Below are positions 42,137 through 61,914 of a stretch of DNA of 61,914 bases, one piece after another (position 1 is the first letter of the stretch; every line of letters begins with the position of its first letter). The notes beneath the pieces were generated by a model. The model had not been told where the DNA came from and did not search any database. It saw nothing but the letters and a program-made list of their open reading frames with translations. The translations under genes and the position numbers were made by a program. Origin of the DNA: Chthoniobacteraceae bacterium (GTDB taxonomy: Bacteria > Verrucomicrobiota > Verrucomicrobiia > Chthoniobacterales > Chthoniobacteraceae); assembly GCA_028293625.1 (NCBI GenBank), contig JAQGOL010000026.1, forward strand, positions 1-61,914. Direction: 5' to 3'.

Positions 42137-42811
42137 TTATGTTCGTGCCCGCATTGAGAGCAGACTAATCAGCCCCGCGAAAGCCAATACGATGGTGTCT
42201 GGTTCAGGAATGACTGCCAGATTGGCGATACCGAAACTCTCCGGGTCCTCGCCCCCGGCACTTTTGGTTACCAGCGGGTCAAAAGCCAGATTTGCTCCAT
42301 TGCTTGGGACCATCCATGTTCCGCCTCCGTGGATGGGGCCTTGCTGGCGGCTGAACTGCCCATACGCCTGCCCCGGCGCCAATGTGATTGAAGCGAAATC
42401 GTTTGCCATCAAACCCGGAAACCAGCGTATCCCAAGTCTAAGCCCGGCTGGCACGACATTCTCCGCAAACTCAAATACACGCTCAAGCCGGCCCGCGGTA
42501 TCGGCACCTTTAAACAGGTCAAATCCATTGGTAGATGAGAAGTCACTCTCCGCTCCGCCTCCGGTAGTAAAGATTGCTGAAAGAAGAGTATCATCTCCGC
42601 TCACCCATTGACTGCCGCCATCAGCGAGATCGATCGGGTTAAAGATGCCGTCGCCGCCCAGATTAATTAATTGAAGCAACGAGCCGGCGGGCAACGATTG
42701 GTTCTGCGCTGACTGCAACAGCCCGCCTGCAATGCTGATCACAATGCTGCCGTGGCTCACACCTGAAAGAGACGCGCAGGCGAAAAGCATCATCAACACG
42801 CGCCTCTTCAT
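42137..42811 (-). CDS. PEP-CTERM protein (tandem paralogue A)
   Basis: 224 residues. Signal peptide about 1-21 (LMMLFACASLSGVSHG), then VISIAGGLLQSAQNQSLPAGSLLQLINLGGDGIF and WVSGDDTLL, a beta-rich body. C-terminus VIPEPDTIVLAFAGLISLLSMRART is a PEP-CTERM tail with a short basic end. It overlaps the preceding paralogue by ATGA (42808-42811). Confidence 0.85.
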   Translation of the reverse strand: MKRRVLMMLFACASLSGVSHGSIVISIAGGLLQSAQNQSLPAGSLLQLINLGGDGIFNPIDLADGGSQWVSGDDTLLSAIFTTGGGAESDFSSTNGFDLFKGADTAGRLERVFEFAENVVPAGLRLGIRWFPGLMANDFASITLAPGQAYGQFSRQQGPIHGGGTWMVPSNGANLAFDPLVTKSAGGEDPESFGIANLAVIPEPDTIVLAFAGLISLLSMRART

Positions 42812-43548
42812 TGCGCCATGCGCCGGCGATACCAGCAGAGTGCCGCGAACGTGGCCGCGAAAATTGGGAGAAGCGACCCGGCTTCAGGAACACTCGTTGA
42901 TGCACCCGGCGTCTGGAAACTCGCCACACCGATGTTGTTGAAGTCTGATCCGCCAAAGGCCGTGGTAATCAGCGAATCGAAGATCACTGCGGAACCTGCC
43001 TCCGGCACTATCCATTCCGCGTCTCCATACAGCGACATCCCCTGCCGCGTAAACTGCCCATAAAAACTGCCAGGCGCAGGGGCTGTTGAACCATAGCTAT
43101 TGCTTGCAGCGATGTGGGGAAACCAACGGATGCCAAGCTTGTCGCCCGGATTGAGATTCACATCGAAATCGAAGTTAAAAACTCGATCGAGCGTTCCGGC
43201 CGTTCCCACGCCATCCGTTAGATCAAACGAACCTGCGCTCGCATATCCATCCACATTGGGGATTCCCGAAGCAAAAGGTAAATTTACAACCGAATCATCC
43301 CCGCCTATCCAGGAAGCGAGGCCGATTGAGTCAAAGACACCGTTGGCGCCGAGGTTCACCAGCTGAAGCATCGCCCCTGTTCCCAACGCGCTGCCGGTCT
43401 CAGTGCGGAACTCTCCGCCTGCCATACTGATGGTAATCATCGTGGCATGAGCCAAGCTCGCGCACAGCAAACTGCCCGCTACAAAAAGGGAGAGAATACC
43501 ACCGCCGGGGATCACTGTTTTCATTGGTTTAGCTTGATAAAGGTTCAT
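42808..43548 (-). CDS. PEP-CTERM-like protein (tandem paralogue B)
   Basis: 246 residues from ATG 43548, which overlaps the stop of the TIGR02597-like gene as ATGA (a start at 43524 would also fit the signal peptide MKTVIPGGGILSLFVAGSLL). The body repeats its neighbour's pattern: MITISMAGGEFRTETGSALG, LQLVNLGANGVFDSIGL, WIGGDDSVV, FDFDVNLNPGDKLGIRWFP. The end SVPEAGSLLPIFAATFAAL with WYRRRMAQ is a PEP-CTERM-like signal with V-P-E-A in place of PEP. Exported, likely surface-sorted; function unknown. Confidence 0.82.
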   Translation of the reverse strand: MNLYQAKPMKTVIPGGGILSLFVAGSLLCASLAHATMITISMAGGEFRTETGSALGTGAMLQLVNLGANGVFDSIGLASWIGGDDSVVNLPFASGIPNVDGYASAGSFDLTDGVGTAGTLDRVFNFDFDVNLNPGDKLGIRWFPHIAASNSYGSTAPAPGSFYGQFTRQGMSLYGDAEWIVPEAGSAVIFDSLITTAFGGSDFNNIGVASFQTPGASTSVPEAGSLLPIFAATFAALCWYRRRMAQ

Positions 43549-44693
43549 TCGGTTACCGGCATCGGCTGCACCCAATCCTTGCCCGGGTTGCCTATTGCTT
43601 TACGGATGATGTAGGCGCGGCCCGGCTCAAGAATCACGTCGTTGCCCACGGTGGTTGAAGCAGATCCGGCCTGCCGCCATCCTTGCCCCGCCAGATAATA
43701 ATAGATGCGGGCCGGAGCGCGATTGAACCCTGCCTGACCGTTGGCCCATTCAAGCAACAAATCGGTGCGGCGCAGGATGCTAGGCGAGGATTGGACCACG
43801 CTTTGACTCGGAGTAACGGCGTCTACCAAGCCTGAGGCGTTAAGCCTCACTGGCTCCGCCTGCGCCAGCGCCACATAGAAGTCGTTGGACTGTGTTGCAG
43901 ACGCGCCCTGCACAAATACAACCGCCTGCTCCCGCAGCGGCACCCCTACAACAATCATACTCAACGCTTCCATCCCCTTGCGACGCACCAAAAACGGCTC
44001 GCCCGCTCCAATCGGTTGCTCGCCCATGTCTATAACTCCTCCTCCTCGAACACGCCATCCTTCTCCTTCCACATAGAAAAATTCTCGAGAAGGCGCCTTG
44101 TTCGTGCCGACGCGGTCCTGGTCATATAGGAGCACCGAATCTTTAATCACAAAATCATTGGGCTGCTTCTCAATTATCACTTCGTCTTCATTGTTGCCGA
44201 ACAGAGAGCCGACCGTCCACGCCGGCCGAATGCGAACCGTATCCCCAAACGCCAGCGCCCCCAGTGGATGCGCGGTCAGGTCGTCGCCTTCGGTCTCTAC
44301 AACGATGCCGTCCCCGGAGTTGTCAAGAATCCGGTAGGAGACCCCTTTTAAGTGGCCTGATGTAAACTCCACATGATATGCCCCTTGAGGAACGCCGCCG
44401 GGCCCGATTCCTGTGGCAAAGCGCCTGGGCGTAAATCCCGCGGCCGCGCAAATAATCTGGTTGGGTTGAACCGCTGTGACCTTTGCATAAGTCGTGGCCG
44501 CCCGAAAGAGAGGCACTGAAACATGGTTATCCGAAGCGCCATTCAGCTCGACCGCAAAATATCCCGCAGGCGGCGAGGAAGCTAATTCAACCATCTCGGC
44601 ACAGGCAGATTCCCGTGCAACAACAAGAGCTACTGCGCCGCAAAGAAACAGGAAATAACGAGGGCACTGAAACAGATGAGAAAAGTAGTTCAC
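43545..44693 (-). CDS. Secreted protein resembling verrucomicrobial TIGR02597
   Basis: 382 residues if GTG 44693 is used; the frame is open to GTG 44747, which overlaps the preceding gene. The protein has a hydrophobic leader (YFLFLCGAVALVV) and a beta-rich body with VPLFRAATTYAKVTAVQPNQI, GVPQGAYHVEFTSGHLKGVSYRILDN, FGDTVRIRPAWTVGSLF and a related second half (DFYVALAQAEPVRLNASGL, LRRTDLLLEWANGQAGF). This matches, from memory, the conserved hypothetical family TIGR02597 of Verrucomicrobia, where it also travels with PEP-CTERM proteins. Its start codon is uncertain. It is the first of a three-gene coupled set. Confidence 0.7.
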   Translation of the reverse strand: MNYFSHLFQCPRYFLFLCGAVALVVARESACAEMVELASSPPAGYFAVELNGASDNHVSVPLFRAATTYAKVTAVQPNQIICAAAGFTPRRFATGIGPGGVPQGAYHVEFTSGHLKGVSYRILDNSGDGIVVETEGDDLTAHPLGALAFGDTVRIRPAWTVGSLFGNNEDEVIIEKQPNDFVIKDSVLLYDQDRVGTNKAPSREFFYVEGEGWRVRGGGVIDMGEQPIGAGEPFLVRRKGMEALSMIVVGVPLREQAVVFVQGASATQSNDFYVALAQAEPVRLNASGLVDAVTPSQSVVQSSPSILRRTDLLLEWANGQAGFNRAPARIYYYLAGQGWRQAGSASTTVGNDVILEPGRAYIIRKAIGNPGKDWVQPMPVTE

Positions 44694-44728
44694 TGGAGTA
44701 GGAAAAATACGGTTAGCCGAAGTGAATG

Positions 44729-46006
44729 TTAGCGTTTGCCGGGGCACGTTGCGCAGCCCGCGCTGCCGCGCACCACATTGACTGAACCTGGAGCAGACCC
44801 GCTGCCGCTGGCCGCCATCGTGACCGTCTTTGAATCACGCATCGCGGCCTGGAACCGCTCCCATTTATTAAAGCCCGCCAGACCACCTTCCAGATAGAAG
44901 GCGTTTGCAGAAGCACCCGCTTCTTCAATTGTGCGGTAATGCTCCCCGTGATCCGTTACAAAGAGAAGTTGTTCACTCGCGGACATGCCAGCCAGCAACG
45001 GCGCCAACGATTCCTTCCACTGCTCTTTCGTCCAGGCCGGATCATAGATCAATATTTTCGCCCCTGTCATTCCAGCGGCACCTTTTACCTGGTGCGCGCT
45101 TGCCTGGACGATTCTCCAGCCGCTTTCGATTGTCCACTCATCAAACTGACTTGGCGGGATCGTCATCACCTCGGCCATTTCAGAAAGCGAACCCGAGAGC
45201 GCTTTCCCGGCTCGCGTCCATGCGCGCAGACCGCCGGCCAAAATCCGCACGGATGCCGCGCCGCGCGATTCCAATTGTGTGATCTCTTTCAGGAGCTCCC
45301 CATCCTGATGTCCCTCCGCAATGAGGATCACCTGTTTTCCATTGAGAAAACCAAGCGTCTTGAGCAGGTGCGGAGGGAAATGCATTGCACCGGGAATGCT
45401 CAGGCGTTCGAACTTGGCCCGGGGTCTGACATCGAGAAGCACTGGCGCGCTGCCATTGCTTCGCAACGCTTCCATTTCAGCCATGCTTATATAGGAGGCA
45501 ACCGGAACCTCCTGCTTAAGACGCGGGTTTGAGACCAGGCCTTTCCATTGAAATTGAATCAGACGGCGATTCGCGCGGTTGGTCTCAACCAGCACCTCCG
45601 CCCTCGCAACCCCGGGTGCGGGCGCCCGATAGAGCAACTTCACACTTCCTGTTTCTCCCGCCTCAATCTCGCTTGGAAACTTCACAATGCTCAAACACGA
45701 GCACGAAGATTCCACTCGCAAAATCTTCAATCGCTCCGCGCCAGGATTCCTAATTACAAACTCGTGACTGATTTCAGCGCCAGACCGAGCCCTCCCGAAA
45801 TCAAAGCCTGCCTCCGCCTCCACTGCACTCTCGCCAGGCCCGGCTTTGAGACCTTCATTTCCTATTTTCGGCTTGTGAAACTCATGCAAAAAGAGCGCCA
45901 AAGCCCCGGCACTCGCCATAATGAATACTGCCGCTGAAATAATAAAAGGCCGGCGGCGCCGTGCCGTTACGGTGACGGCTATTTCAGAAGTTGGCGGCGG
46001 TTGCAT
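44729..46006 (-). CDS. DUF1573 domain fused to two rhodanese-like domains lacking the catalytic Cys
   Basis: 425 residues from ATG 46006 (TTG 46042 is an alternative). One membrane helix (about 20-41), a DUF1573 domain (about 65-157: FDFGRARSGAEISHEFVIRNPG, LRVESSCSCLSIVKFP, GETGSVKLLY), then a rhodanese-like domain (about 171-271) whose active-site loop reads LIAEGHQDG, without the cysteine of C-x5-R, and a second similar unit (about 285-395, LLFVTDHGEHYRT) also without it. The tail ends CATCPGKR. It is therefore a membrane-anchored periplasmic protein, probably a binding or redox-scaffold partner of the divergent rhodanese and MauE-like proteins. Confidence 0.82.
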   Translation of the reverse strand: MQPPPTSEIAVTVTARRRRPFIISAAVFIMASAGALALFLHEFHKPKIGNEGLKAGPGESAVEAEAGFDFGRARSGAEISHEFVIRNPGAERLKILRVESSCSCLSIVKFPSEIEAGETGSVKLLYRAPAPGVARAEVLVETNRANRRLIQFQWKGLVSNPRLKQEVPVASYISMAEMEALRSNGSAPVLLDVRPRAKFERLSIPGAMHFPPHLLKTLGFLNGKQVILIAEGHQDGELLKEITQLESRGAASVRILAGGLRAWTRAGKALSGSLSEMAEVMTIPPSQFDEWTIESGWRIVQASAHQVKGAAGMTGAKILIYDPAWTKEQWKESLAPLLAGMSASEQLLFVTDHGEHYRTIEEAGASANAFYLEGGLAGFNKWERFQAAMRDSKTVTMAASGSGSAPGSVNVVRGSAGCATCPGKR

Positions 46007-46129
46007 TGGGTGAAAAAGCGCTCTGAGCAGGATCAAGAACAAATCGCCTTGGTTTTGAATATGGCGCCGGGGGGAATTATTCCCGAGCCGCCCTTAACGA
46101 TGACAATCTGTTGTTATGTGATTAATGAT

Positions 46130-46147
46130 TTGACTCTTTCGAGTCAA
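46130..46147. promoter_or_regulatory. Palindrome in the divergent promoter region
   Basis: TTGACTC-TTTC-GAGTCAA is a perfect 7-bp inverted repeat in the AT-rich 181-bp gap between the divergent redox genes. TTGTTG at about 46110 and CAACAA just after it add outer arms. It could be an operator or a transcript hairpin. Confidence 0.4.
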
Positions 46148-46187
46148 CAACAAGTCAATCAATTCTTGCTTTAAATTAATTTAATTT

Positions 46188-46850
46188 GTGCTCCTTCAGC
46201 GTGAAATAGATAACATTCATTTTCACCTTTCGATTTCTGTAAAATCAGCTGTTTCCCAAACATTCAGAGAACGCCGGCAATCGACGGTTGCCACCTCCGC
46301 TTTGTCCCATCAATTACGCCACGTCCTTCTTACGGATCTCATCGCCCTGGCGCTAATCTTCGTCGTTGCGCTTTTGATCGGGCTCGTTCGCAACCAATTA
46401 AGCGCCATTCCTCTTGAGATCCCTTATCAGTCCAAACAGGCACGCCTCACGACTGCATCGCTTTCGCTTCCTCCTATCGGACCTGACCAGCCGAATCTGT
46501 CGCGGCAATACATTACTCAAACCGGTCTATCGACTTTGCTCCAAAAAAAACACGCGTTGCTCATCGACGCCCGCCCGGGTTTGTTTCACCAGGCCGGACA
46601 TCTGCCCGGCGCACTTTCTTTACCCCGCGCGAGCTTTAGAGAGAGCTACTTTTCGTTACGCGCCCAGCTTGAAGAAGCTTCGCGGCGCCGGACTCCGATT
46701 GTGGTCTACTGCCAGAACGTGGAATGTGAAGATAGCGAAATGGTAGCCGATACCCTGCGACATCTTGGCCTAAATAATGTCCTCGTCTTGCGTGAAGGGT
46801 TCCGGGCTTGGGAAGATGCAAACCTGCTTATCGAACCAAAGCGTCGCTAA
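46188..46850 (+). CDS. Membrane-anchored rhodanese
   Basis: 220 residues if GTG 46188 is the start; the true start could be later (TTG around 46302). One membrane helix at about 49-68 (DLIALALIFVVALLIGLV). Rhodanese domain about 107-217 with LLIDARPGLFHQAGHLPGALS and the active-site cysteine C175 in VYCQNVECEDS, followed by the DTLRHLGLNNVLVLREGFRAW ending. It is a sulfur-carrying or thiol-transferring domain facing the periplasm if the helix is the anchor. The MauE-like gene begins 11 nt after its stop, so the two are one operon. Confidence 0.8.
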   Translation: MLLQREIDNIHFHLSISVKSAVSQTFRERRQSTVATSALSHQLRHVLLTDLIALALIFVVALLIGLVRNQLSAIPLEIPYQSKQARLTTASLSLPPIGPDQPNLSRQYITQTGLSTLLQKKHALLIDARPGLFHQAGHLPGALSLPRASFRESYFSLRAQLEEASRRRTPIVVYCQNVECEDSEMVADTLRHLGLNNVLVLREGFRAWEDANLLIEPKRR

Positions 46851-46861
46851 AACCTGGGCGC

Positions 46862-47338
46862 ATGAAAATCTCTTATCCAACCCTCGCCCGCTGGATACTC
46901 GCAGCCGTTTTTGGGTACGCGGGCTGGCAAAAGGTCAAAGAGCCCGCGGCGTTTGCGGATAGCGTTGCAGCCTACCAACTTCTTGGCCCTGTTTCTATCA
47001 GCCTGGCTGCAATTGCGCTTCCTACTCTCGAACTCCTGACAGCAGTCTTGCTTATTATAAACCGGCCGCGGCGTTTGGGAACCGTGGCGGCGGCTGCAAT
47101 GACCGCTTTATTCACCGTGTCACTCGCTTCGGTGCTCGCGCGAGGCCTGCAGATCGACTGTGGCTGTTTTGGTTCAGGCAAAGCGGCGCCAACCAGCACT
47201 TGGCCGGCCTTCGCCCGCGCTTTACTACTCTTCGCCATTGCCACCGCGCTTTACCTGTTTGAACTGCTGAAGAGATCTCCCGAAAGCCCGACGGCTGGCA
47301 TTTCGAACCCAGCCTCAGACGTCCGGATCGAAAAATAA
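46862..47338 (+). CDS. MauE/DoxX-like redox membrane protein
   Basis: 158 residues with four membrane segments (about 9-24, 44-64, 71-90, 115-138). The motif QIDCGCFGSG (about 99-108) is the redox cysteine pair of MauE/DoxX-associated proteins, thought to pass electrons to disulfide-forming partners. It starts 11 nt after the rhodanese gene. Together with the rhodanese and the divergent DUF1573 protein it makes a redox module. ATG 46862. Confidence 0.86.
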   Translation: MKISYPTLARWILAAVFGYAGWQKVKEPAAFADSVAAYQLLGPVSISLAAIALPTLELLTAVLLIINRPRRLGTVAAAAMTALFTVSLASVLARGLQIDCGCFGSGKAAPTSTWPAFARALLLFAIATALYLFELLKRSPESPTAGISNPASDVRIEK

Positions 47339-47340
47339 CT

Positions 47341-49467
47341 TCATTGAATCCTGCCTACGCGCAATTCCAAAAAACGTTTGCCAGACCCGCCTTCAACCGC
47401 CACCGAGTCCCGCATTTTCTTGCGAATAAAACCTTCAGGCAGATTTTCCTGGGTAACCGCCAGCACGGTAGTTGCAGGCGTCCAGTTACTCTTAGGCGTT
47501 TTCAGGCTGTCAGCGGCCACCACCGTGCAGGCAAGGCCCGGATCGTCGGTGCGCTGGCGGTAGGTCATTGTCAGGTAATGCAGGCCGTTGTATTCCTCGA
47601 CCCGGACCTCAGGCCCGGCAAAATCATCGGGATTCGTCGGATCGCTCCCTGTGGCATACTCCAGTGCGTTGGGAAGTTCGTCCCCGTCGCCGTCGGCCGA
47701 TTCACCAACAATCGCGGGATCGGTTACTCCGGGCCAATAGCGGTTCTTCCAGGCATCGTAAAGAAGCCCGGCCGTGACGGTGATCATGGTTGACTTGCGG
47801 TCGCCAAGCTTTCCATCGGAGGCAGCAAACTGGACGGGATAGTTCCCCGTTTGCTCGGCTCCCGGTCGCCACTCAAAAACCGCCGTGCCATGGCCGTTAT
47901 CCGAGAAGCTGGCGCCCACGGGCAATGAAGCCACTGTGATCGCCACAGGATCGCCATCGGCATCGCTGGCTTGCACAATAAATCCAATTAAACTTCCCAC
48001 ACGCGCCACGCGGTCGGCTGGTTGCCGCAAAACTGGCGCGCGGTTCCCGCTTCCTGGACTCCCGAAATTGACGGCATACGAAGCCCCGCCCACATTATTG
48101 ATATCGAAGATATTCAGAAAATAGTTCCACCGCTGCACATCCGGCAGATAAGTCGAGGAGAGCCATGCATTGGCAAGGTTGATTGGCTTACCATCGCTGC
48201 GCATCGCTGAGTTCACAACCTTCGAGCCGCCAAACGGGTCAGCCAGTTTGATATAAGAAAACCCTGAACTTGCAGGCGCGGTGATTTGGTATCCTGAAGC
48301 AATCGGGCCAATCCCAGCAAAGGAGCTCAGATCCACCACACTCCCATCGTAGTTCTCCGACTCATAAACCCGGAGGGTATCGCCATCAAGCGCCAGGAAA
48401 TCGCGGATACTGTCCCGGCCGGAAAGATCAACAAGCACGTCGCGGATCAGCCGATGCGCGTTTAAATCTGTAATGAGCGAAGTCAGCTGTCCGCCCAGTT
48501 CATCCGCATGCGTAAACGTCGCGCTAAAATCGACAAACCGCCCATAAAGCGACGTGGTCATGATCCAGCGCCCGACAGCAGACCTGTTGGGCGCGATGTT
48601 GCCAAAGTCGGCAAGCAGGCTTGGCGTGGAGGGCTGGCCGTTTATCTCGCTTCCTTCAATCCTGAAGTTGATCAGAAGCCCCTGCTTGTTCTCCACGATC
48701 CGAGGCTGGCTCGATTCAATCTTTAGTTTTCTGGCCGCGCCATACCCCGAGTTCTTTATCCGGACTCCCAGGCTGAACGGAATCGATGGTTCAATCAAAG
48801 GCGTAAACGGATCATCGCCATAAACATCAAACGGCAAAAAATAATCGAGCGCGAGCATTGGCATCGGCTCAACACGGATTGAGTCCGGCGCAACATCAAC
48901 CACCGACTCCGCACCGCTGGAGGTATACGTCAGCTTTGCTCCAACAAAATAGAGTGTCCCGGTTGGATCGCTCCCGGCCGAGGATGGCGCCGGCACAATC
49001 AGCCAGCGCAGCTTTTCTTCTCCGCCACCTGCCACCCGTTCCGGCAACGCGGGACTGCTGGTCAGGCGCACGAAAAATTTGGCACCCGTGTTATTTGAAT
49101 CCGAGGTGGCAACCACAGGCTTCTTATCCTGATCAAGAAAGTTCAGAACCACCTTCACGTTTTCCAAGTCGACAGGCCCCCCATTCTTCACATTCATCCG
49201 CGCCTCAAACCCCTGCCGCTCCAAAGTAAGATCCTGGTCTATCTCAATCTTCACCCGGACACAGATGGAGTCCTGACAACGCGCCGACTGCGCAAATAGT
49301 GCCCACGCAACAAATCCATAACCACATGTCCGAATTAAGGATTCACCAAACGAGAGGCAGAATAAATCCCTCAGGGCAATTGCGAATCGCGCATATCCTC
49401 CTGAAAATGCCAGCCAAGTGACAACAAGTCTAGAGTGAACCGCCAGATTTGAAGCTAAGATTTTCAT
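47341..49467 (-). CDS. Secreted Ig-domain protein coupled to the Rhs/immunity locus
   Basis: 708 residues. A hydrophobic N-terminal region (GFVAWALFAQSARCQ about 49-63) acts as signal. The main body is beta-rich and contains CARDB-like sequence (about 75-135: GFEARMNVKNGGPVDLENVKVVLNF, SLGVRIKNSGYGAARKLKIESS) and a putative Ig/cadherin-like domain (about 475-575: APVLRQPADRVARVGSLIGF, QTGNYPVQFAASDGKL). A calcium-rich linker-like region GESADGDGDELPNALEYATGSDPTNPDD follows. It starts in an ATGA overlap with the small immunity-like gene and is thus likely part of the same transcript as the giant Rhs gene. It resembles other large Verrucomicrobia secreted proteins; no enzyme was recognised. Confidence 0.75.
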   Translation of the reverse strand: MKILASNLAVHSRLVVTWLAFSGGYARFAIALRDLFCLSFGESLIRTCGYGFVAWALFAQSARCQDSICVRVKIEIDQDLTLERQGFEARMNVKNGGPVDLENVKVVLNFLDQDKKPVVATSDSNNTGAKFFVRLTSSPALPERVAGGGEEKLRWLIVPAPSSAGSDPTGTLYFVGAKLTYTSSGAESVVDVAPDSIRVEPMPMLALDYFLPFDVYGDDPFTPLIEPSIPFSLGVRIKNSGYGAARKLKIESSQPRIVENKQGLLINFRIEGSEINGQPSTPSLLADFGNIAPNRSAVGRWIMTTSLYGRFVDFSATFTHADELGGQLTSLITDLNAHRLIRDVLVDLSGRDSIRDFLALDGDTLRVYESENYDGSVVDLSSFAGIGPIASGYQITAPASSGFSYIKLADPFGGSKVVNSAMRSDGKPINLANAWLSSTYLPDVQRWNYFLNIFDINNVGGASYAVNFGSPGSGNRAPVLRQPADRVARVGSLIGFIVQASDADGDPVAITVASLPVGASFSDNGHGTAVFEWRPGAEQTGNYPVQFAASDGKLGDRKSTMITVTAGLLYDAWKNRYWPGVTDPAIVGESADGDGDELPNALEYATGSDPTNPDDFAGPEVRVEEYNGLHYLTMTYRQRTDDPGLACTVVAADSLKTPKSNWTPATTVLAVTQENLPEGFIRKKMRDSVAVEGGSGKRFLELRVGRIQ

Positions 49468-49844
49468 GTTGGGTCATTCGCGTTGAAAGCTACATATAGG
49501 CTATGGCGCTTTTCATTCAGGTTTTGCTCAATCGTATTCGCCACACCGCCAACAACTTTAGAATCGAAAGAAAGATCATTTAAACTGCCCATTCCCCCAA
49601 ACAAGAGAATGCGAAGGTAATCCATTTGCCTGCAGGTCACCGGCGAATCCTGTCGATCGAGCATCTCTGCGATTATTTTGAGCATTGAATACCACTGAAG
49701 CGCTTTTGGATCCGACACTTTGTCGTGTCCTTTAGCATACTCACTACCGTTCCAATGCAACGCACTTCCGCTCGAAGAGTGGATTAACGGTTCTAACTCC
49801 GCCGCGACTGCGTTGAGATTTTCAATAAAGTATTTTTTGTTCAT
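49464..49844 (-). CDS. Putative immunity protein for the Rhs C-terminal domain
   Basis: 126 residues, helical, no signal peptide or membrane helix, so cytoplasmic as expected of an immunity protein. It starts 2 nt after the stop of the giant Rhs gene and overlaps the next gene by ATGA. I recognise no known immunity family. Its sequence is noticeably more AT-rich than the genes around it (for example TTTTTTGTTCATT at its start), the usual sign of an exchanged toxin-immunity module. The assignment rests on position, size and composition, not on homology. Confidence 0.55.
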   Translation of the reverse strand: MNKKYFIENLNAVAAELEPLIHSSSGSALHWNGSEYAKGHDKVSDPKALQWYSMLKIIAEMLDRQDSPVTCRQMDYLRILLFGGMGSLNDLSFDSKVVGGVANTIEQNLNEKRHSLYVAFNANDPT

Positions 49845-49846
49845 TG

Positions 49847-52800
49847 CTACTGGAGGATCAGCACACCTGCATTTCGTATAAATATTTGAACGGCACTATC
49901 TGCTCCCCCTTCCACGCCTCCTACGAAAATCCGCGTCCCTGCAGGAATAACAACCGAATTGAGTGTCTCGGCAGTGGCGCCGGCAGGGAGATTCAATGCG
50001 ATACTGGCGGCCGTAGGCGAGGAAATTTGGCTAACGGTTTCGGCGGTAGTCAAAAACCGACCAGTTGCTCCAGAAACACCTCCTGAATATCGATATGCAA
50101 CAATTGAATCTTCCAATACAGTGGAAGTATATTTCCCACCCGCAAAAGTGGCGGCAATTTCCGGAGTAATTACAGTTGCTGCGCGTTGCGCCGCAACTCC
50201 TCCGGGAATAATTCCTCCTAATGCGCCCGATACTGCGGATGATTCAATTACATCAGATACAGACGCCCCGGGATCTTTTAATAGGCCTGTGATTGCACCA
50301 CTAAACGCCCCCCAACCTGCACCGGCCAGCGCCCCTGCTGTAGCACCCGGGACAGCACCAACACCACCGGCAAGTGATCCAACGCCAGCGCCAACCAGCG
50401 CTCCAGTCCCGGCGCCAGCTAACGCTCCCGTCCCTGCGCCAATCAGCGCGTTGCGAAGTCGGCGCAGTCCATCCGGATCGGAGAAACCTAGAGGGTTATT
50501 CGCAACGTAAATATATAGATTAGTACCATCGTCGCCTTGGTCTCGGGTGAAATACCTTCCGGCCTCCGGATCGTAATACCGGTGCCAGTTATTGTGCAGC
50601 CCGGTCTCCGCGTCGAAATACTGGCCCGGGAAGCGAAGATTGTTTTCCACCAGATTGACTGTGATGTTCGCTTTTCCGAAGTCATCGTAGGTGGCGGCCC
50701 AGACTACCGCGCCGGAAACATCAGTGAGCTTGACCGGGGTTCCCAGTTGGTCGGCGTGGTAGAAATAGACCTGGCCGGCAGATTTCAGGTAAAGGGGTGC
50801 GGCGCCAAAGGAGGCGTCAGCAGCGTAGCCGTACTCGCGGAGCAGAGCGCCGAATGCGTCGTATTCGGCACAGATTCCTAACGCGCAGTGACGATAGTAA
50901 GTAACGGTGCCATTGACGTTTTTTGCAATCCGGCGGCCGCTCGGATCGTAATGATATTGAATTACGTCGAATCCGCTGGTTACACCAACAAGCCTGCCCG
51001 CCTGGTCATACGAGTAGTCCCATGTCCGGGTTGGAGAAATTTTGCGGACGAGCGAGCCGTTTTCGTCGTATTGATAAGTTGTCCGGCCGTCGGAAGTCAT
51101 CCGGTCATCGAGATCATACTGCCAGGTCCCTCCGCCGGCCGTTGAATCGGTCAGCCGGTTTCCATTCGGGTCATAGGTATAGCTGGACGAAGCCCCCTGC
51201 TTCAGGCGATTCCCCGCATCATATTGAAGAGAAACAGGGCCGGCGCCGGTGTCCCGCGAACTGACATTTCCTCCGGCGCTATAGCCGAGTTTTAAATCAA
51301 AAACCGCTGTGTTCGCCGGATCTGATGACTTGATTTGAGTGGGCCGCGAGTAAGCATCGCGTGTATAAGCGACCTTCGTTCCGCCCGGATACGTCATCCC
51401 GGTGGCAGCATCGACCTGGTAACCATTCACGGCAAACTCGCCGACCCCTGCCACGCTTGATCCGATCAGGCGATTTGCGGAAGCGTAACTGTAAGTCGTT
51501 ACGGCGCCCGAAGGTGATGTGTAACTGGCCAACTGTCCGTTGGCACCGTAGCTATAGGAAACGGTGCTCGTAAACGCACCATAATTGATCGTCTCGGTCG
51601 CCAGGCGCCCAACCGCATCGAAGCCATAGGTCCCGGTCGTGGTTCCATCGTTGTAACTGGTGATCCGTCCATCCTCGTCCCTGGTGAATACGACCGTTTT
51701 GGCCGGCACGCCACTTCCGGGTGCATATTCACTTACCGTCGTCACCCTGCCAAGCGCATCGAATCCGCGGACAATCTTTGCGCCGGTCGGCCGCGTAACA
51801 ACGGTTAGATTGCCAATATTATCGTAGACAAAAGCGGTGCGTTTTCCGAGCGGAGTAACCTCCTCAACCAGTTGCCCTGCGGCATCGTAAGCATATGTCC
51901 ATACCTGGCCGTTTGGATTGGTGAATGCGATGACGTGATCGCGGTCATCGTAGGCAAAAGAACTGGTTCCGACTCCCTCACGAGTCATGGAAGTCACCCG
52001 ATCCAGAACATCGCGTGTGAATGTGGTCTGATGGTTCTCGGGATCGACTATAGTGAGGAGCGCGCCGGTAGGCGAGTAGTTGTAGCTCGTCGTATGGACC
52101 ACGCCCTCAGGCAGACTATCGACAACCGTCAGCGGCTGGTGCCGGAAGTTATAAGTAAGCGTCCGCGTGAAGGTGGGGAAGGTGATCGTCACCGGATCGG
52201 CGGACGCGCTGCCGTCCGGGTAACCATAGAGGATCTGGTTTCCCTGCTCGTCGAACCCTTTGATCAACCGGTCGAGGTTATCATACTCATAAGCGAGCGA
52301 ATGGCCCGCACGATCAACACTCCTGGAGAGGCGTCCGCCGGAGTCGTATTCGTTGCGGTGCATACTCCCCGCCGGATCAAGGATCGAAACCAGGCTATTA
52401 TTGATGTCATAGCCAAAGTTAACCTTCCGGTTGGAGGGCGCAGTGACGGATGTCAGATTGTTAAATTCATCGAACTCAAACTGCGTGAGGCGATTGTCGG
52501 GGTCGACTGACGCGTTGACCCGGTTATGCGAGTCATACCGAAGCTGCCACGTCTTTCCATTGGCGTCCTTGTAGCTCTTGACGCTGTTAAGCGAAGTGCG
52601 GGAGAGAATTTCGCGGACCTTGTTCAGCGGATCAGTCAGACGCAGAAGATTGCCTTGGGCGTCGTACGCAAGAGCCACGGTTGATGCGGCGGTATTGGCA
52701 TCTCCGAGCCACGTTACCAGGGTTGGCCGGTCCGCTGCGTCATAAACAAACTGCACTTTGCGTTCCGACGGTGTTCCGAAGGCTTCAATAATCTGCGTCA

Positions 52801-55800
52801 CGTTCCGGCGCAGATCGTAGCTAATCGTCGTGACCAGGCCATTTTCATTGACGATGCGGACGGGCAGATGCGAGACCGGATCGTAACTCATTGATATCGA
52901 GCTGCCGTCCGGATTGATCCGTTGTTTTAGGAGGCGCCACTCGTCGTAACTTTCATGCCATGTGCGATTGTTCTCGTCAGTAATCGTGGCTGCAGTGGCG
53001 CCAGTGTAGACCCGGCGTTCCTTGAGTTCCCCGTTGATCTTCCACTCGGTAAGCTGGCCGATCTTATCAAATGTCGTCTCCTCAACAGTGCCGGAGCTCG
53101 AACGAATGGCGGTGTGATATTCACCCGTGGCGGAATCCGTGTTGAAGTCGAAGTATTTGCCCCGGCCATCCTTGTCGAGGACCGAGCGAACCGCGGCCCC
53201 ATTATAGCTGATAAGATGCGTTTCACCGGTGGCATCGGTTACTTTGGTAATTTTGCCTTCGGAATCGTATTCATAGGAAGTCTCTTTCCCGCCGGTATCC
53301 TTCACCTTGGCAAGCCGGCCGCCCAGATAACTGTATTCAACGCGGCGTCCGGCAAGATCCTGCACTGCAGCCAGGAGCGAGGGATTGGCCGCATTACCGG
53401 GCTCGCCGATCCATTCATAACTTAACAGCACACGCTGGCCATCGGTGACCTGGATCGGGCGATGCCGGGCATCAAAAAGCGTGGTGGTATAGGTGATGTT
53501 GTTGCGCCCTGTCGCCGCGATGTTCTGATAACGATCGAATTTGGTCCAGGAGCCGTCAGCCTCGGTAAGCTGCCCTTCACCGTCCGGTAACGGAGTAAAC
53601 GTGATTCCTTTGATCGGCTTGTCGACTCGCACGCCTTTCCAGTAGTACTGCGAAAGGTTGGCGCCTCCACTCACTCCTCCGGCCAGCACCGCGCACAGCG
53701 AACGGGAACCGCCTTTGACCCGGCGCAGTTTAATGGATTGATCCCCAATCGTGCATGTGGCGGTGCCATCGGAACCCGCGCCTGCTGCCGCGGGGGCATC
53801 AACTGACATCACAGACATCCCGTCGCGGATGACAACGAGCTTATCGAGCATTGACCATTGCGTACCCCGAATGCGCCGCGACACCGCCACCGACGCATTC
53901 TGCCGGCCCGGAACCGGGACGTTGATGTCCAGAACATCATCTTCGTAACGGCGTGTAAGAGAGTCGACCGAGCAGCCAACTGCGCTCAGGGTCCAATCCC
54001 GGTCATTCCACGTCCGGGTCGAAACATCGACAATTTCCCAGCCCCAGCATTCCACGCCGTCAGTGACAGGAAGTGGGGTGTAAGTCGTGCCACCACCTGG
54101 GCCACTGCCGGTTGCAAGCCACGACCATCCGATTCCAATACCTCCGCAATCTCCGAACTGCCCGGCGATCAGGTATTGAAGCGAGCCATTGAAAGTAAGC
54201 CCGTTGGAACAGACATAAGCGTAGGTGACACTGATCAGGCTAACGTAGGAGACGCATCCGCCCCCCTCTCCAATGGAAGCGAGCGTCATCGGCTCCCCGG
54301 GAGCCAAGCCGTTATCTCCCGCTCCATTGCTTCCCAAAACGCCAGGATTAGTTACCGCCACCGATTGGCCGCGGCCTTCGGATGAAGCTATCGCTCCACA
54401 ATTGCCGCCGAAATTGGCAATCGCAGTCATCCGATAAGCGACACGCATAACTTCGCCCGCACCGAGCGTGGTGGGGATGCCGCCAAGTAGCTCAACCTTA
54501 AAGTAGGCGTCGCTTTGCGGCACAGGCACCTTGATGTCATCCGCGCGGATCAACCCGTAGTTGGTGATGGTGAATTCACCATTATAAACGTCGCCCTTGC
54601 ACATCCTCGGGAGATTGACCGCCGGAGGATCAATCACGATGACAGGCGCCGGCACATTCGTCTCAAATGTTGCCTTTAAAACAATATTGTAGCGATCCTG
54701 GATGGTAATCGGGACAACTTCAAATTCCACTGTCACCGGATTATACTGCATCGCGACATCCTGGTTGGCGCTCGCCCCGGGACGAATCCAAAGGCGGCCT
54801 GATGAAGTCACATGCTTATCCGCGTTGACCCTATATTTATAGGGGCCGGCAGGCAGGTTGCTGGCGGAAGCCTCCCCGAAAGCGTCGGTCGTCAGAGTCT
54901 GAAAAATGGAGATGACCTGCTCGTTCTGCAACTCGATCCGCGCATTGCGCAATCCCTGAATGACAGAACCATTTTCATCAAGCGTGCCGGTATATGGGTC
55001 CCGCACTTTGAATATCGCTCCGCCCTGTCCGGCCGTGGTAACCGCCACGTGGACATTCACGTCGCTCGAAGTATAATTCTCGGTTCGAGCCCGGAGGATG
55101 AAAAAATAGTCTCCCTCCGCGATGGAAGCGGGCGGCTGCAAATTAATCCCGACCGGCCGGTTCGCACCGACTACAAGATCCGTGGCGCCGGAGCTTGTCA
55201 GGCTTACCCAATTCGGAGCCACCGAACCGTTCTGATTCAGGATACTGAAGCTGAGTCCCTGCGCATCCGCCAGCCCCGCATTTTCATAGTTGACGGTTTC
55301 GGTTACGCTTCCTCCTGGATTAACCCCTGTCGTAATGAATCCGGGTGTCGTGCGCAGGAGCGCGCTCGCTTCGCCGAACTCAAGATGGATCACCACCTTT
55401 TGCCATCCGCCTGACCCGCTTTCATCGCTAACAGCCCTCAACACCAGGTCCGACCGCTGAGCCGCGTCGCCGGAACCTGAAACTTTAGCGCCCAATGAGG
55501 CAGAAAGCTTCGGCCCCAAAACCGGGATCGGCTCGCCAACCTGCACGATAATACCCTCCGGCAGCACTCCTCCAACCTGGTCTTCAGGCAGATACTGAAG
55601 CCGCAGATTGTGCACTGTGACCGCTTCTCCTGTGGACGCCGAAAAGCTAAGCGGTTGGGAATAATTGCGAGGTGTGCGGAAGCCGCTTTCCCTCGGAGTG
55701 ACGAGGACACGGCGAACCACAAAGGTTTGCTGGACTTTGCGGGCCGTCAGATCGGGATGAACAGCCCAAACGTTATAAAGGCCGCCACCTTCTCCCGTGG

Positions 55801-58800
55801 CAGGACGGAAGGAGTAGGCAAAATTGCCGCTGCCATCAGTGACTACTTCATTGGTGCGTTCAAAACCGTCCTTTGAAACGACGACCAGCAACCGGGCATT
55901 CGGGATCGCCTGGCCGCCGATACGGGCAATAGCATGACCCGCAATCACGACATCCTGATCCCCATTGGATTCGGCCGGACTGACCGAGGTAACTTCCCCA
56001 GTATACGTCGTCTGCAGAGCACTCACGTCCCTTCGGCTCTGCAATCCTGGCAGCATCACCTGATCCACCTGGCCTTGGTGGTAGTAGATTGTATCAATTT
56101 CCAAACGAACAATCAGGTTCTCGGGCGCGGTGGATGGAAGCGCCACGGAGGTTTCGGGCGAGACATACTCCGCTCCGGCCGGCAGGCGCACGACGCTTCT
56201 CCCGTTGGGCAGCGTCACGACGCTGTTGCCTGTCACCGCTTTAAAAGCCTCGGTCGCAATCACATTGCCATCCGTATCCAGCAAGGTAAACCGGATCTCG
56301 GGCGATGGCAGCGAGCCGCTCCCGCTTGCCGTGGTAAATTCGATTTCTTCTTCGGAGCCATTGGCTACCCGGAACTGCACCTTGCCATTACCGCCTTGGA
56401 GGAAATCACCCGGCACCACGTCGACCTGTAATTTTCCCGAGCCTAGCGGCACGTTGCTATGCCTGACGATTGAAACCTTCTCCCCTTCATTGGGAACAAT
56501 CTCGAGCGTGATCGCAACCGGAGCCGTGTCACCAAGCAAGGTCGGATAACCTCCGACTACGACCGGGACGATCTGCGCGGACCCGGCAGCGACCGAAAAG
56601 AAAGAGGATGAATGTTCTTTTCCATCAAGGGTCACTCTCATCCGGGCGTGGCTGATTGCCGTCCCTGACTCATTCTTTACTTCAAACTGCAGACGGTTCA
56701 TTACGCCGCGATTGATCACACTTCCCGCTGCCAGCGTGACGGTTGTCCGCGGAAGGGTAAGATTTCGTCCCAGGCTTTCGGCTTGGTTATCAGCCACGGT
56801 GATCACCGTGTAATGCCGGTCGGCCGCGGGGCTGTAACCGGCGTCCGTGAAGTTCGTACCCGTTAATATTCCCTGAAGGTTTAACTTGGTCCGCTCGCCT
56901 TCGGTCCCTTGGTAAATATCGTATCCGGCAATTCCACCTGAAACTTGCGACCAGCTAACCAGTGGAGCCGAAGAATCAACCTGGGTCACTTCCAACGTCC
57001 GGACAGGAAGGAGAGCCACATTCTGATAGACGCGATTGGAAGGTTGCGATTGGTTTCCGGCGTTATCAACTGCGGTGACATAATAGACTGGATGCGCTGG
57101 TTCCGGCGAAGGATCAATAGCAACAAGCTGGCTGACGGCCTCTGCGACAATCTGCGAGTCCGAGCCATTCAAAGCGGAGCGAAATACCCGGTATGTAACG
57201 CTCTCCAGGGTGCCGGCGGGCGCCAGCCATTGCGTCTTGACTCCCTGGCTGGTGAGTTCGACTTGAAGGTTCAGTGGCGAGGTTGGCGCGACACGGTCCG
57301 ATGCCGCCGTCGCAATGTTGCTCTGCGTCCCCACCGACGTCTCATTATTCTCCTGACGAATAGCGGCAACTGTATAGTCGTAGACCCCATCCACCAATGG
57401 CAGCTCCGTGACTACCAGCAAACCAGCGCTACGCGAGACAGCAACAAAGAGCCCGCTTCCTGATGGCCGCCGGAATAGCTGGTAATCGGCGGCACCGTCC
57501 ACGCTGCGCCAATTCAGCTCGATGTGTCCGCCCGGTTTGGATTTGGCCGTAAGCGAAAAAGGCGAGTCAAGGCCAGGCAGATCACCTTGGTAGACCTGAA
57601 AGCCATGAGAAGGAACAATGACGGTGCCAATGTTATCAAGGTCGTCCAACGCAATGAACGACAGCTCCAGGTTCTCCGTGGTCTGGCCGGCGGTTGGGGG
57701 AAGAAGAATTGTAGCGATCCAGGTGAAACTATCCGCTCCCTGAACTACGTTGGACACTGCGGCCTTTGTTGGCGATGTGTTGGATAGAGAGTAAGAAAAC
57801 TCCGGAGCGGTTCCTGCCTTAACGAGTGTATCTAATCGTGCGGTGAAGGTAACCAGCTTAGGCGCGGAAGGATCATTCTTAACCGAGCGGCCGGGCTGGA
57901 TTTCCAGTTCAACGACTCGGGGGCCAGCTGTATCAATGGTGATTGTTCCGCCCACCGTGATGGCCGTGCCGCGGTTTCCGGCCACGTCGCGCATCGAGAC
58001 CGTTGCCGTCGCCAATCCCGATTGCGTTCCACTGCTGATAACAAACGATCCTATGTAACGCTGGGCTCCTGATTTTTGAAACGCAACGCCGATAGGCACT
58101 CCGCCCTGCGGCGTGATGCTAAAAAAGGGTGTTGAGCCAAGTTCCTCGCTCGCATCAAGTTGCACATCGACGCGCCCAATTCCAAATCGTGCCGCTGCGC
58201 CGTCATATTTGCCTTGAGGCAAGTAATTGATTGAAGCCGCAATGGGGACGGTCCGGTCGGCCTTCGCTGAAACCACGGAAGAGAGTACACTCTCAGTGCC
58301 AGCGGCGTTTAGTGTGCTCAGCCGGTAAAAGTAGACACGATCAGCAGGGGTTGAGTCGTTGTAAACGGTTCCTGTCACCAACGCTGCGTTGAGCCGGGTT
58401 GCCTGAGCCGCGCTTTCGAATTCGGTTTCCGAGCGATAGATGGCGTATCCGGCAACAAATCCGGAAGGCCGGCTCCATGAAAGCTGAACCACGCCATTTG
58501 GCTGGGCTGTCGCGTGTACGGCAACCGGCGTCGAAGGGGTCGCTCCGTCGAGTGTAAGGTTGACTGCATCGCGCGGCCCTTCACCTCCCCTGTTTCGCAT
58601 CGCCGCCTGAATAAAATTGGCGCCTTCAACAAGAGCGAGCGGCTTTGTAAAAGTACCATCCGAGAGGGCGGTGATCAAAGGCAGTTGCAGGATGCCATCC
58701 CTATAAACTGCGACCTGACTGTAAGGCGATGCGGTGCCCGTGATCACGAGATCGGCCTTGGCAACGGTCGATCCGGTGGCCGGCGAAGTAATGGAAGGCG

Positions 58801-61800
58801 CCGAAGGCGGGGCAAGCGCAAGATGCACGCCGCGGCTTTCAACGGTGCTATTGCCAAGAGTATCAGACGCCTTAAGTGTAATAATATAGTCGCCGTCCGA
58901 GGATGTCAGGCCAACGTTCCAAAATGCCTGAAAGCCGTCCTGTGCATTCGCATCAGTGTCAATCAAGGTATCGACGCCTCCGCCTGCGGAACGAAAGTAG
59001 AATTCCACACGGCTGACTCCCGACATGTCTGAAGCTGACACGCTAAGGACCGCTGGCTGCGAAACGCCAAGACCTTGGGTGAATTCGGACGCTCCATAAC
59101 GCCATTGTGCCAGGAGCGGGCCAGCATGGTCCGGAGGCGTTAGCTCTATCCGGATCGCCGCTGATCCTCTCGCTGAGTTATTATTCTCGTTGAGACTCTC
59201 GTAGACCTCATTCGCTCGATCCGCGGCTACAAAAATATAGTAATTTCCCGAGATACCCGGCGCGATTTTTACAGCCTGGTCCTGGCGCGTGTAAGTTGCG
59301 TTTTGCGCGAGCTCGCCGCTATGAGCAAAGGTTCCAAGCAGCGTCGCCGTGTTGATATCCAACACTGGTTGAGAAGAAAGGTAAATGGCGTCTTGCCACG
59401 AGGATTCATCCGCTGGGACGGGGCCTGACCCCCCATTTACCACGGTCCAACTTACCAAGATTTCCTGGTTTGCGACGCCGTTTGGAGGAGCTGTCACCGA
59501 CGAAACCCGAAGGTCGGGCGGCGGCGAGAGCTGGATCGCCGCCACGGATACTTCACTATTATTTCCATCGTTCGCCTCAATCAAGGCATGGCCGCTGTCA
59601 GCTTTTACAATGACGTAATAGGTGCCTGAGTAACCTGCAGGTACTTTAAGGTCCGTACCGGATACGTAGCTTTCCCCCGGAAGGAGAGCCTTCGGATTGG
59701 CGATTTCCACTTTCCATTGATCAAGGGAGTCCGCGATTTGATCTGTGGAAAGGAATACCTGATCATGCCAGGCCGACCCGGAGGCTGGGCCGGTTCCCAC
59801 ATTTCTAACCGTCCATTGCACGTGAATTGTCTGACCGGACCGCACACCTGCCGGAATGCTTATTGACTGCACGATAAGGTCGGGAATCGGTGTGACCGAA
59901 ACCGCGACTGATTGAAGGTCGAGCGTGCTGTTATTGGTTTCATTTTCCTCGACAATTGAATTCAGGACATCCGCGATAACAACGATGTGGTAATTGCCGG
60001 CGGCGACTGCCGCCCGCGGGATAGTGACCGTCTGCGCTCTTCCTGCTATCTCTCCTGCAACAAGATTCCCGGCGTTGACAAACTGTCCGAGAAGAATGTC
60101 GTTTCCTACAAGGCCATCGGCAGAAAGATAAATTCGGTCAACCCAGGGCCCGGTGGCAGCGGCCGTCCCGCGGTTTGCGGCCGTCCAATTTACCTCAAAT
60201 GCGATGTCAGTCGACACGGATGCAGGTGCGTTGATACTCTCAATGATCAGATCAGGGTAAGGGGCAATCACAGACGTCTCGATACGGCTCGCCGTATTAT
60301 TAGTCTCCGCCGGCGAGACCGGATCGAACTCGACAACCTGGCCGTTGCAATCCGCTATGATGGTAAAGAGCAATTCGCCGACGCCGGCGGCGCCGTCGGG
60401 AATCTGAAATGAGTATTGGCGAGGCCGCGTTTGGCCACCGGTAATCGCACCTAAAGAACTTACATCATAATAAAGCTCTGTATTAAGAAGAGTAGCTCCT
60501 GTTGTTTTATTCAGGACTGTGACTTTATCGGACCACGAACCGGAAGCCGGGAGTAAACCGCTGTTTCTGTCATTCCAACGGATCACGACCAGCGATCCGG
60601 ACCGAAGCGGGCCGGCAGTCTCCACCGCCAGATCGCTGATCTGCAGGTCAAGTGGAACGTCAAAAATAGTTTGGCCGCTGTTATTGTGTTCGGCGGTTGT
60701 GTGTCCGCTTTCGTCGAACTCGAAAATCTTCTCACGGGAATCGACCACAATGCTTGCCTGATAACGGCCGGCTGAAAGGATGCTGATGTCAAGTGACTGA
60801 GCGAGAACTGCACCGGCGGCTAGTACGGTGGAAATCTCACGTTCGGTATCAAGCAAAACAAGTTCGCTTGTAAGATTTCGCACAACTACATGTTCCTTCC
60901 ACGGTTGCGCTGCGCTGCCCGTGCCGCGATTGGCGGTTTTCCACGAGAGATTTAACGCACTGGATGAGAGAGCGCCGTTTATTACCACTGCCTCCGGGAC
61001 GAGATCAGGGTAGGCTGCCCGGACAACATGCAGCGTCGCATTGGACACCGTTACATTGTCACCTTCCAATAGGAATTCATTGACGGCATTCCCGGCATCG
61101 GCCTCCACGATGAGATAATATTCACCAGCGATACCGTCGGGAATCGTCAGAGTTGAAGTTTCGATGTAACTGCCGCCGGAAGCCAGCGCGCCCACATGCG
61201 GAATAGTGCCAATGACAATGTCGTCACCATCACCGAGAATCGGATTGAGAGAAAGCGTGACTCGGTCGGACCAGGCCCCCGCTACTGTGCTTGTATTACC
61301 CGCGTTCTGAATTGCGTAAGTAAGTGTGATCGCCTGGCCGCTTTGGATATTTCCCGACGACGGCGGCACGAGGCTGGTTACTTGCAGGTTCGGAAAATTA
61401 AAGCTTCCACTGGTACTAACCTGCACATCAAGGAGGTAAGAGTAGTTAAGCCCGCTTGCTGCGCTCTTATTTCGAGCTACGGCGTAATAAACGCCTGTTT
61501 GATCGATTGGAACCTCCGCGACTCCGTCAAATGGCCGGCCGCTTGGAACTTCGGATTTATAGGTCCCGTTAACGTTGTAGATGCTGACGGCTGGATCAAA
61601 CGCGCTTCCGGCCGGCTTGCGGGTCCGAAGAAAAATGGTCTTTCCTGCCTCGATGGTGCCGATCTTATAATAATCAAGATCGCCACCGAAATTAATGAAA
61701 CCTGCAACGCTTCCGAGAGTCGCGTCTCCACTGGAAGTCAGTGGCAACACGGTGGCGCTGGCTATGGAGTCATTATTTTCGGTCTCGATCTGGAGGGGCG

Positions 61801-61914
61801 GCGCCGCCATTGTCACCCGGAAGCGGTATTCGCCCGGGTAATCGTAGTAATAGACCGATACCACCACCGTGTAGACACCGCTTAGTGGCAGCACCACCGG
61901 CGCGGACTGGCCGC
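49847..61914 (-). CDS. Giant secreted CARDB/PPC/FN3/Rhs-repeat polymorphic-toxin-like protein, 5' end beyond window
   Basis: At least 4,020 residues; the frame is open at the right edge (the codons before GTG 61897 read GQSAPV). From N to C: two PPC domains (about 61430-61914), six CARDB-type Ig repeats (about 59150-61420; for example [12 protein letters not shown]), Big/FN3-like domains, a carboxypeptidase-regulatory-like region, and a long Rhs/YD-repeat region (about 50480-53450; [61 protein letters not shown]). The Rhs core ends with SDPDGL at 50465-50490, and a C-terminal part of ~205 residues follows. The architecture is that of a secreted cell-surface or contact-dependent toxin. Part of the giant protein may be adhesive. 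Confidence 0.87.
   Translation of the reverse strand, partial: [4021 protein letters not shown]
49850..50464 (-). other. Variable C-terminal domain of the giant Rhs protein (candidate toxin)
   Basis: After the Rhs core (DPDGL) comes a glycine/alanine-rich hydrophobic segment ([13 protein letters not shown]... about 50290-50450) and then about 100 residues ending in [53 protein letters not shown]. The order R-x-x-G...GRFLT...LPxG...IPAG...GG...Q is reminiscent of TNT-like/ADP-ribosyltransferase-like toxin tails in Rhs and haemagglutinin proteins, but I could not verify this. It is entered as a domain, not as a separate gene. Confidence 0.45.

What the first reader, a model, noticed from the sequence alone, without database searches (positions are those of the whole stretch)
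44729..47338. Divergent redox module: DUF1573/rhodanese-like fusion versus rhodanese and MauE-like protein
One rhodanese is active (C175) while the two domains of the divergent protein have lost the cysteine (LIAEGHQDG). The MauE-like protein supplies the CxC redox pair. It resembles a membrane thiol or sulfur relay with a scaffold subunit.
Basis: partly seen in the sequence, partly recalled or inferred. Interest (0 to 1): 0.5.

Follow-up and report, generated by a model that had tools for sequence, protein, structure and literature searches.

The report
Inactive rhodanese partner of RHS giants
A bacterial gene first read as the scaffold of a sulphur-transfer trio belongs to a family of rhodanese-like proteins without a catalytic cysteine that accompanies giant RHS proteins in several bacterial groups, while the active rhodanese and MauE genes beside it are a common, separate redox pair.

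Summary
In detail: a DUF1573 + tandem rhodanese-like protein (P1, 44729-46042, -) faces an active-type rhodanese (P2, 46188-46850, +) and a MauE protein (P3, 46862-47338, +). P1 lacks the rhodanese catalytic cysteine, and so do all 18 proteins aligned from this kind of cluster, P1 included; it is no sequence error. But P1 is not a thiol-free scaffold: it has exactly four cysteines, CxC in DUF1573 and CxxC near the C terminus.

P1's constant partners are the giant RHS protein (49847-61897) and the 708-residue protein P708 (47341-49467), not P2/P3. In the class, all 14 genomes where P708 is encoded apart from RHS carry a Cys-less tandem rhodanese; profiles of it find none in the other genomes searched. 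Where P708 is fused into the RHS protein no rhodanese was seen (31 loci, mostly downstream flank only). The link recurs in Desulfobacteraceae, Gammaproteobacteria and Lentisphaerae. P2-P3 is a widespread pair (57 of 89 P2-like rows lie beside MauE), found in this cassette in 2 of 6 close cases. Function (docking/assembly with a thiol tail) is inferred.

The parts
44729..46042 (-). P1: N-terminal membrane helix, DUF1573 (C114/C116), two rhodanese-like domains without catalytic Cys, flexible tail with C430/C433
46188..46850 (+). P2: membrane-anchored rhodanese with C175 and C180 (CxxxxC)
   Evidence: anchor read from the sequence
46862..47338 (+). P3: MauE family membrane protein with C100/C102 (CxC)
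47341..49467 (-). P708: exported all-beta protein with one cysteine (C69) invariant in 28 of 28 homologues; no Pfam match over its main conserved domain (about 61-480)
49464..49844 (-). small gene between RHS and P708, immunity-gene position (inferred from place only)
49847..61897 (-). giant CARDB/RHS (YD-repeat) protein, 4016 aa ORF, start near the window end
43545..44747 (-). TIGR02597 family protein; overlaps the end of P1 and recurs in the cassette of G245, G136 and G004

Best explanation
P1 is an exported, membrane-anchored member of a family of tandem rhodanese-like proteins without catalytic cysteine. The family is an accessory of split RHS systems, that is, of loci where P708 is encoded apart from the giant RHS protein. 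Shown by comparison: the gene association, the conserved loss of the catalytic Cys, and a conserved C-terminal thiol in the P1-type subfamily. Inferred: the rhodanese folds serve as a docking or assembly module that holds P708 and/or the RHS protein at the envelope instead of moving sulfur, and the thiols that act in P1 are the C-terminal CxxC and the DUF1573 CxC. P2 and P3 are a separate, widespread envelope redox pair that here lies inside the cassette and may keep P1's (or P708's) cysteines in the needed redox state.
For: All 14 class genomes with an RHS-separate P708 have a Cys-less tandem rhodanese, 13 on the same contig. Whole-genome profile searches find the P1-type only in 6 of 286 genomes, the same 6 whose P708 scores above 400 bits, and the A5-type only in 8 of 256, all separate-P708 loci. 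No rhodanese near 31 RHS-fused P708 loci. Same pairing outside the class: 4 of 5 new genomes. Catalytic Cys absent in 18 of 18. Tail Cys in 10 of 10 P1-type proteins at 18-26% identity to P1. Non-catalytic rhodanese domains act as binding platforms in TBC1D23 and occur in the FNR-docking protein TROL (PMC7274447, PMC12295754, passages). DUF1573 selenoproteins with UGC are tabulated (PMC9312934, PMC13188914, passages), which fits a redox CxC.
Against: No binding or activity datum. The tail Cys is missing in 8 of 8 A5-type proteins and is a single Cys in L104 and L106, so the thiol is not needed for the association as such. The invariant P708 Cys also occurs in RHS-fused forms without a rhodanese. 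Cys-less rhodanese domains are not rare in the class: 5 of 6 readable ordinary matches also lack it, though that set was picked by likeness to P1. One P708 locus cut at a contig start (L161, G125) and one unclear (L128) have no rhodanese; L105 has none either. Upstream flanks of the fused loci are mostly out of view. In G004 P1 and P708 are on different contigs. The profiles contain their own hits.
Confidence: 0.6

Rival explanations
1. One reading: P1, P2 and P3 form one membrane thiol/sulfur relay, with P2 as the active rhodanese, MauE passing electrons and P1 as scaffold or substrate carrier.
For: P2-P3 pairs lie near DUF1573 genes in 20 of 89 rows; DUF1573 is also divergent from the pair in G089, G118 and (rhodanese only) G156; P2/P3-like genes sit in the G004 cassette; P1 has free cysteine pairs.
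Against: P1-type proteins without P2-like or P3-like matches in G245, G135 and G201 and none beside P1 in L103, L104, L106.
Confidence: 0.2
2. P2-P3 sit here by chance, as a mobile pair between P708 and P1, with no functional tie to the cassette.
For: The pair is common in other settings, for example beside Wzy_C and ABC transporter genes; it is on the opposite strand and ends 2 bp from the P708 stop.
Against: G004 shows the same pair beside P708 and TIGR02597 in another arrangement.
Confidence: 0.3
3. P1 is a metal-binding or metal-delivery protein (CxC plus CxxC) rather than a docking or redox protein.
For: Two cysteine pairs; a sub-threshold P3 hit to a Cu-related RiPP maturation family (HvfX, 14.8 bits, cut-off 80).
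Against: L104 and L106 have one tail Cys and no DUF1573 CxC; I noticed no metal gene in the neighbourhoods read, which were not searched for one.
Confidence: 0.07

Closest known systems
Tandem rhodanese sulfurtransferases (PF00581; best PDB sequence match 1yt8)
   Same: fold, DxR and GG-L-x-W motifs
   Different: catalytic Cys absent in 18 of 18 cassette proteins; C-terminal Cys tail in the P1-type; linked to RHS/P708 genes
Non-catalytic rhodanese domains (TBC1D23, TROL; passages)
   Same: rhodanese fold without sulfur transfer, role in binding or docking complexes
   Different: eukaryotic, other partners, no Cys tail reported in the passages seen
RHS/YD polymorphic systems (PMC3482391, passages)
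   Same: YD repeats, RHS core domain, small gene next to the giant
   Different: split-off P708 and rhodanese-like partner; the held text of that review has no word rhodanese or CARDB
MauE (PF07291) as in methylamine dehydrogenase maturation (role recalled)
   Same: P3 is a family member with CxC
   Different: neighbour is a rhodanese; no methylamine dehydrogenase gene seen among the neighbours read
DUF1573 (PF07610) and OS_HP2 (seleno)protein NF041425
   Same: P1 domain over the Pfam cut-off, CxC where selenoproteins have UGC
   Different: fused to rhodanese domains; 53 bits against a cut-off of 100 for OS_HP2

Membership tests
Active rhodanese sulfurtransferase (P1) | rhodanese fold | tested here: met
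   Pfam 40.7 bits for domain 1; model and Foldseek
Active rhodanese sulfurtransferase (P1) | catalytic cysteine | tested here: not met
   absent in P1 and in 18 of 18 cassette proteins in domain 1; domain 2 read
Active rhodanese sulfurtransferase (P2) | catalytic cysteine in a rhodanese domain | tested here: met
   C175; 8 of 8 P2-type proteins
Active rhodanese sulfurtransferase (P2) | sulfurtransferase activity | not testable with these tools
   needs an assay
TsoB NF045694 (P2) | score over the curated cut-off | tested here: not met
   37.4 bits against 805, one domain only
DUF1573 PF07610 (P1) | score over the Pfam cut-off | tested here: met
   54.2 against 26.1 bits
MauE PF07291 (P3) | score over the Pfam cut-off | tested here: met
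   103.3 against 27 bits
RHS polymorphic system (49847-61897) | YD repeats and RHS core domain | tested here: met
   RHS_repeat 234 bits; Rhs_assc_core 75 against 32.5 bits
RHS polymorphic system (49847-61897) | immunity gene next to the toxin end | tested here: inconclusive
   126-aa gene there; only DUF6966 at 20.3 bits, below the cut-off 27
RHS polymorphic system (49847-61897) | C-terminal effector activity | not tested
   C-terminal domain not studied

The most novel reading that the evidence does not exclude
In split RHS systems a rhodanese fold has been turned from enzyme into a dedicated assembly partner; in the P1-type its flexible cysteine tail makes a disulfide to the invariant cysteine of P708 or to the RHS protein, tethering the parts at the cell surface, with the rhodanese-MauE pair controlling that bond where present.
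Probability: 0.12. Interest if true: 0.72.

Novelty: new variant of a known kind. Interest (0 to 1): 0.5.

Why it matters
How exported RHS giants are assembled is little known (my judgement, not looked up). A near one-to-one link between a P708 protein encoded apart from its RHS partner and a catalytically dead rhodanese, seen in Verrucomicrobia, Lentisphaerae, Gammaproteobacteria and Desulfobacteraceae, points to a new accessory family with clear tests. It also warns that automatic annotation, which sees a rhodanese domain, would call these proteins sulfurtransferases.

Tried and rejected
A single-sequence scan of GTDB contigs with P1 found no relative; P708 was used instead.

Rhodanese tree: rejected. 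Of 12 reference loci, 2 were dropped for stop codons, 4 (L012, L022, L023, L033) were translated from the wrong strand, 6 are readable; supports are low. Nothing is claimed from the tree; only the reading that 5 of the 6 readable domains (all but L018) lack the Cys is used, as evidence against.

Phage or defence origin: no PHROGs hit for 5 window proteins and no PADLOC hit for 6. Paper PMC13274458 (rhodanese, RHS and transglutaminase in one list) shows separate genes in a mutation table (passages). P708 fold search: no match over most of the domain (best TM-score normalised to the query among listed rows 0.25).

Literature: searches for DUF1573, MauE/rhodanese/DoxX (31), rhodanese + RHS repeat (53), TIGR02597 (54), MauE + disulfide + methylamine dehydrogenase (64), rhodanese + RHS + Verrucomicrobia (65), inactive rhodanese (81) and Verrucomicrobia/RHS repeat/CARDB (82) listed no title or abstract start that describes this cassette, nor did the passages of the six papers opened. 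Most subscription papers are not held. The role of MauE in methylamine dehydrogenase maturation is recalled.

Incomplete or dropped: the MauE and DUF1573 listings used were cut by the tool, so those counts are lower bounds; four DUF1573 places were added to the list. The class rows were sorted by reading: 14 separate, 32 in long ORFs (31 of them with an RHS match in the same ORF; L128 not, contig end near), one cut (G125, L161). Rows that match only the C-terminal part of P708 (G223 and the rows from E 5.7e-15 down) were left out.

Full report
What is there. The three genes exist as described. P1 (44729-46042, minus) is DUF1573 plus rhodanese; P2 (46188-46850, plus) is a rhodanese behind a membrane helix; P3 (46862-47338, plus) is MauE. 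P1's loop reads LIAEGHQDG against VVYCQNVEC in P2. P1 contains exactly four cysteines: 114 and 116 in DUF1573, 430 and 433 in the last eight residues. An AF2 model from five relatives (mean pLDDT 65.6) has a helix at 34-54, a beta domain (79-171), two rhodanese-like domains and a low-confidence tail; the top Foldseek matches are a HYDIN PapD-like domain and a rhodanese-like protein.

Relatives. With P1 as a single query 113 of 286 class genomes match at E <= 0.001; among the rows listed only G245, G004 and G136 match over most of the length, at 26-29% identity. G135 (L037) and G201 (L112) were recognised later. In five proteins (A1, 23-26% identity to P1) C114, C116, C430 and C433 are among 21 invariant columns; in L037 the tail pair is CC, not CxxC. 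In eight (A3, with Desulfobacteraceae and Gammaproteobacteria, where no DUF1573 is seen) the only invariant cysteine is C430. L119 from a Lentisphaerae genome, found after A3 was built, ends CEGCK. So a tail Cys is in 10 of 10 P1-type proteins, and an SCxC in the DUF1573 position in 7 of 10 (read). Pfam-level support for DUF1573 is shown for P1 and G245; L119 scores 25.7 bits, just under the cut-off, and L112 is not reported.

Neighbourhood. G245: P708 - TIGR02597 - RCC1-like - P1 - RHS/LamG giant. G136: TIGR02597 - P708 - P1 - RHS giant. G135 and G201: P1 and P708 on one contig with an RHS giant between. G004: P1 on a 4.8-kb contig, P708 - TIGR02597 - P2-like - P3-like on a 10.2-kb contig; both contigs end inside an open ORF of large repeat proteins, so linkage is plausible, not shown. 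Window: RHS, a 126-aa gene and P708 on the minus strand, then P2-P3 on the plus strand, then P1, TIGR02597 and two PEP-CTERM-like genes on the minus strand.

The association test. P708 was searched in the same 286 genomes. By reading I sorted its strong rows into 14 where P708 is separate (ORFs of 682 to 1472 aa, the domain starting near a signal peptide) and 32 where it lies in a long ORF; one row (G125) is cut by a contig start. All 14 separate cases have a Cys-less tandem rhodanese, 13 on the same contig and G004 on another. It directly follows P708 in 9 (G136, G249, G239, G013, G088, G132, G113, G253, G191). All 32 long-ORF rows were fetched: in 31 the P708 ORF also matches RHS, in L128 it does not; none of the 32 has a rhodanese in view. 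The view is one-sided: at least 1.5 kb downstream in 29 of 32, upstream in 1 of 32. The cut row G125 shows no rhodanese in 9 kb and remains a possible exception.

The reverse test. The A3 profile matches 19 of 286 genomes at E <= 1e-12. In five it covers nearly the whole model (393 bits or more), in G135 one domain (91.8 bits); the other 13 reach at most 55.3 bits over part of the model. Those 6 genomes are the 6 with P708 above 400 bits. The A5 profile matches 8 of 256 genomes at E <= 1e-15, each at 328 bits or more and each in a separate-P708 locus. A3 and A5 align over both domains (98.4% probability). The profiles contain their own hits, so the weight lies in the absence elsewhere, including the genomes that have only RHS-fused P708.

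Outside the class. The P708 alignment found seven GTDB loci. In the five new genomes P1-type genes adjoin P708 or lie in its direct neighbourhood in L103, L104 and L106; L105 has none on its locus and its genome has at best 35.5 bits; the genome of L108 has one on another contig (134.7 bits, L119). So 4 of 5. A transglutaminase-like gene is near in L104 (Pfam 86.7 bits) and, by reading, in L105, L106 and L119.

Cysteines. Loss of the catalytic Cys in domain 1: 18 of 18 proteins aligned, against Cys in 8 of 8 P2-type; L123 has a Cys one place earlier. Such loss is not rare in itself (5 of 6 readable ordinary domains). P708 has one cysteine invariant in 28 of 28 (A4), just behind the signal peptide in separate forms and internal in fused forms. 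Its domain is modelled with confidence (pLDDT 88.8) as all-beta, without a convincing PDB match over its length.

P2 and P3. Of 89 P2-like rows in 66 of 286 genomes, 57 have MauE within 1.5 kb, always on the same strand; 29 have DUF1573 within 2.5 kb; 20 have both. The pair is common, and the window genome has a second DUF1573-rhodanese-MauE set (L086). In the P708 cassette it is seen in the window and, more weakly for P3 (phmmer E 4e-4), in G004: 2 of 6. G245, G135 and G201 have P1 without P2-like or P3-like matches at the thresholds used. DUF1573 and rhodanese selenoproteins are tabulated with UGC and UxxxxU (PMC9312934, PMC13188914; passages), which supports redox roles for the CxC of P1 and the CxxxxC of P2.

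Mechanism. Shown: gene association, loss of the catalytic Cys, conserved tail thiol. Inferred: docking or assembly, by analogy with non-catalytic rhodanese domains in TBC1D23 and TROL (passages). The thiol tail may be a redox switch or a tether, with P2-P3 as an optional servicing pair; this last step is the least certain.

Lineage. The class is taken as verrucomicrobial because contigs of G245 and G136 have the lengths and content of records titled Verrucomicrobia. The window organism itself is not named.

Noticed in passing
49464-49844: 126-aa gene directly between the RHS giant and P708, the place of an immunity gene; only a sub-threshold DUF6966 match.
   Followed up: partly
47341-49467: The main domain of P708 has no Pfam match at E up to 1 (only an Ig-type match at 475-565) yet has an invariant Cys in 28 of 28 and occurs inside RHS giants too.
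   Followed up: partly
L066-L068, L071-L077, L083, L098: P2/P3-type genes share their neighbourhood with a Wzy_C (O-antigen ligase-like) family, seen in these 12 loci, and often an ABC transporter; small cysteine-rich exported proteins follow in some.
   Followed up: no
L074:10354-11634: DUF1573 (28.1 bits) behind an N-terminal part that looks like a C39-type peptidase (the latter by reading only).
   Followed up: no
42137-43575: Two adjacent similar PEP-CTERM-like genes downstream of P1 and TIGR02597; PEP-CTERM hits are below the cut-off.
   Followed up: no
L082, L084, L085, L100: P3-type genes within a few kb of other RHS giants that show no P708 hit; could be chance.
   Followed up: no
L104, L105, L106, L119: Transglutaminase-like gene near P708 or P1 outside the window's class.
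   Followed up: partly
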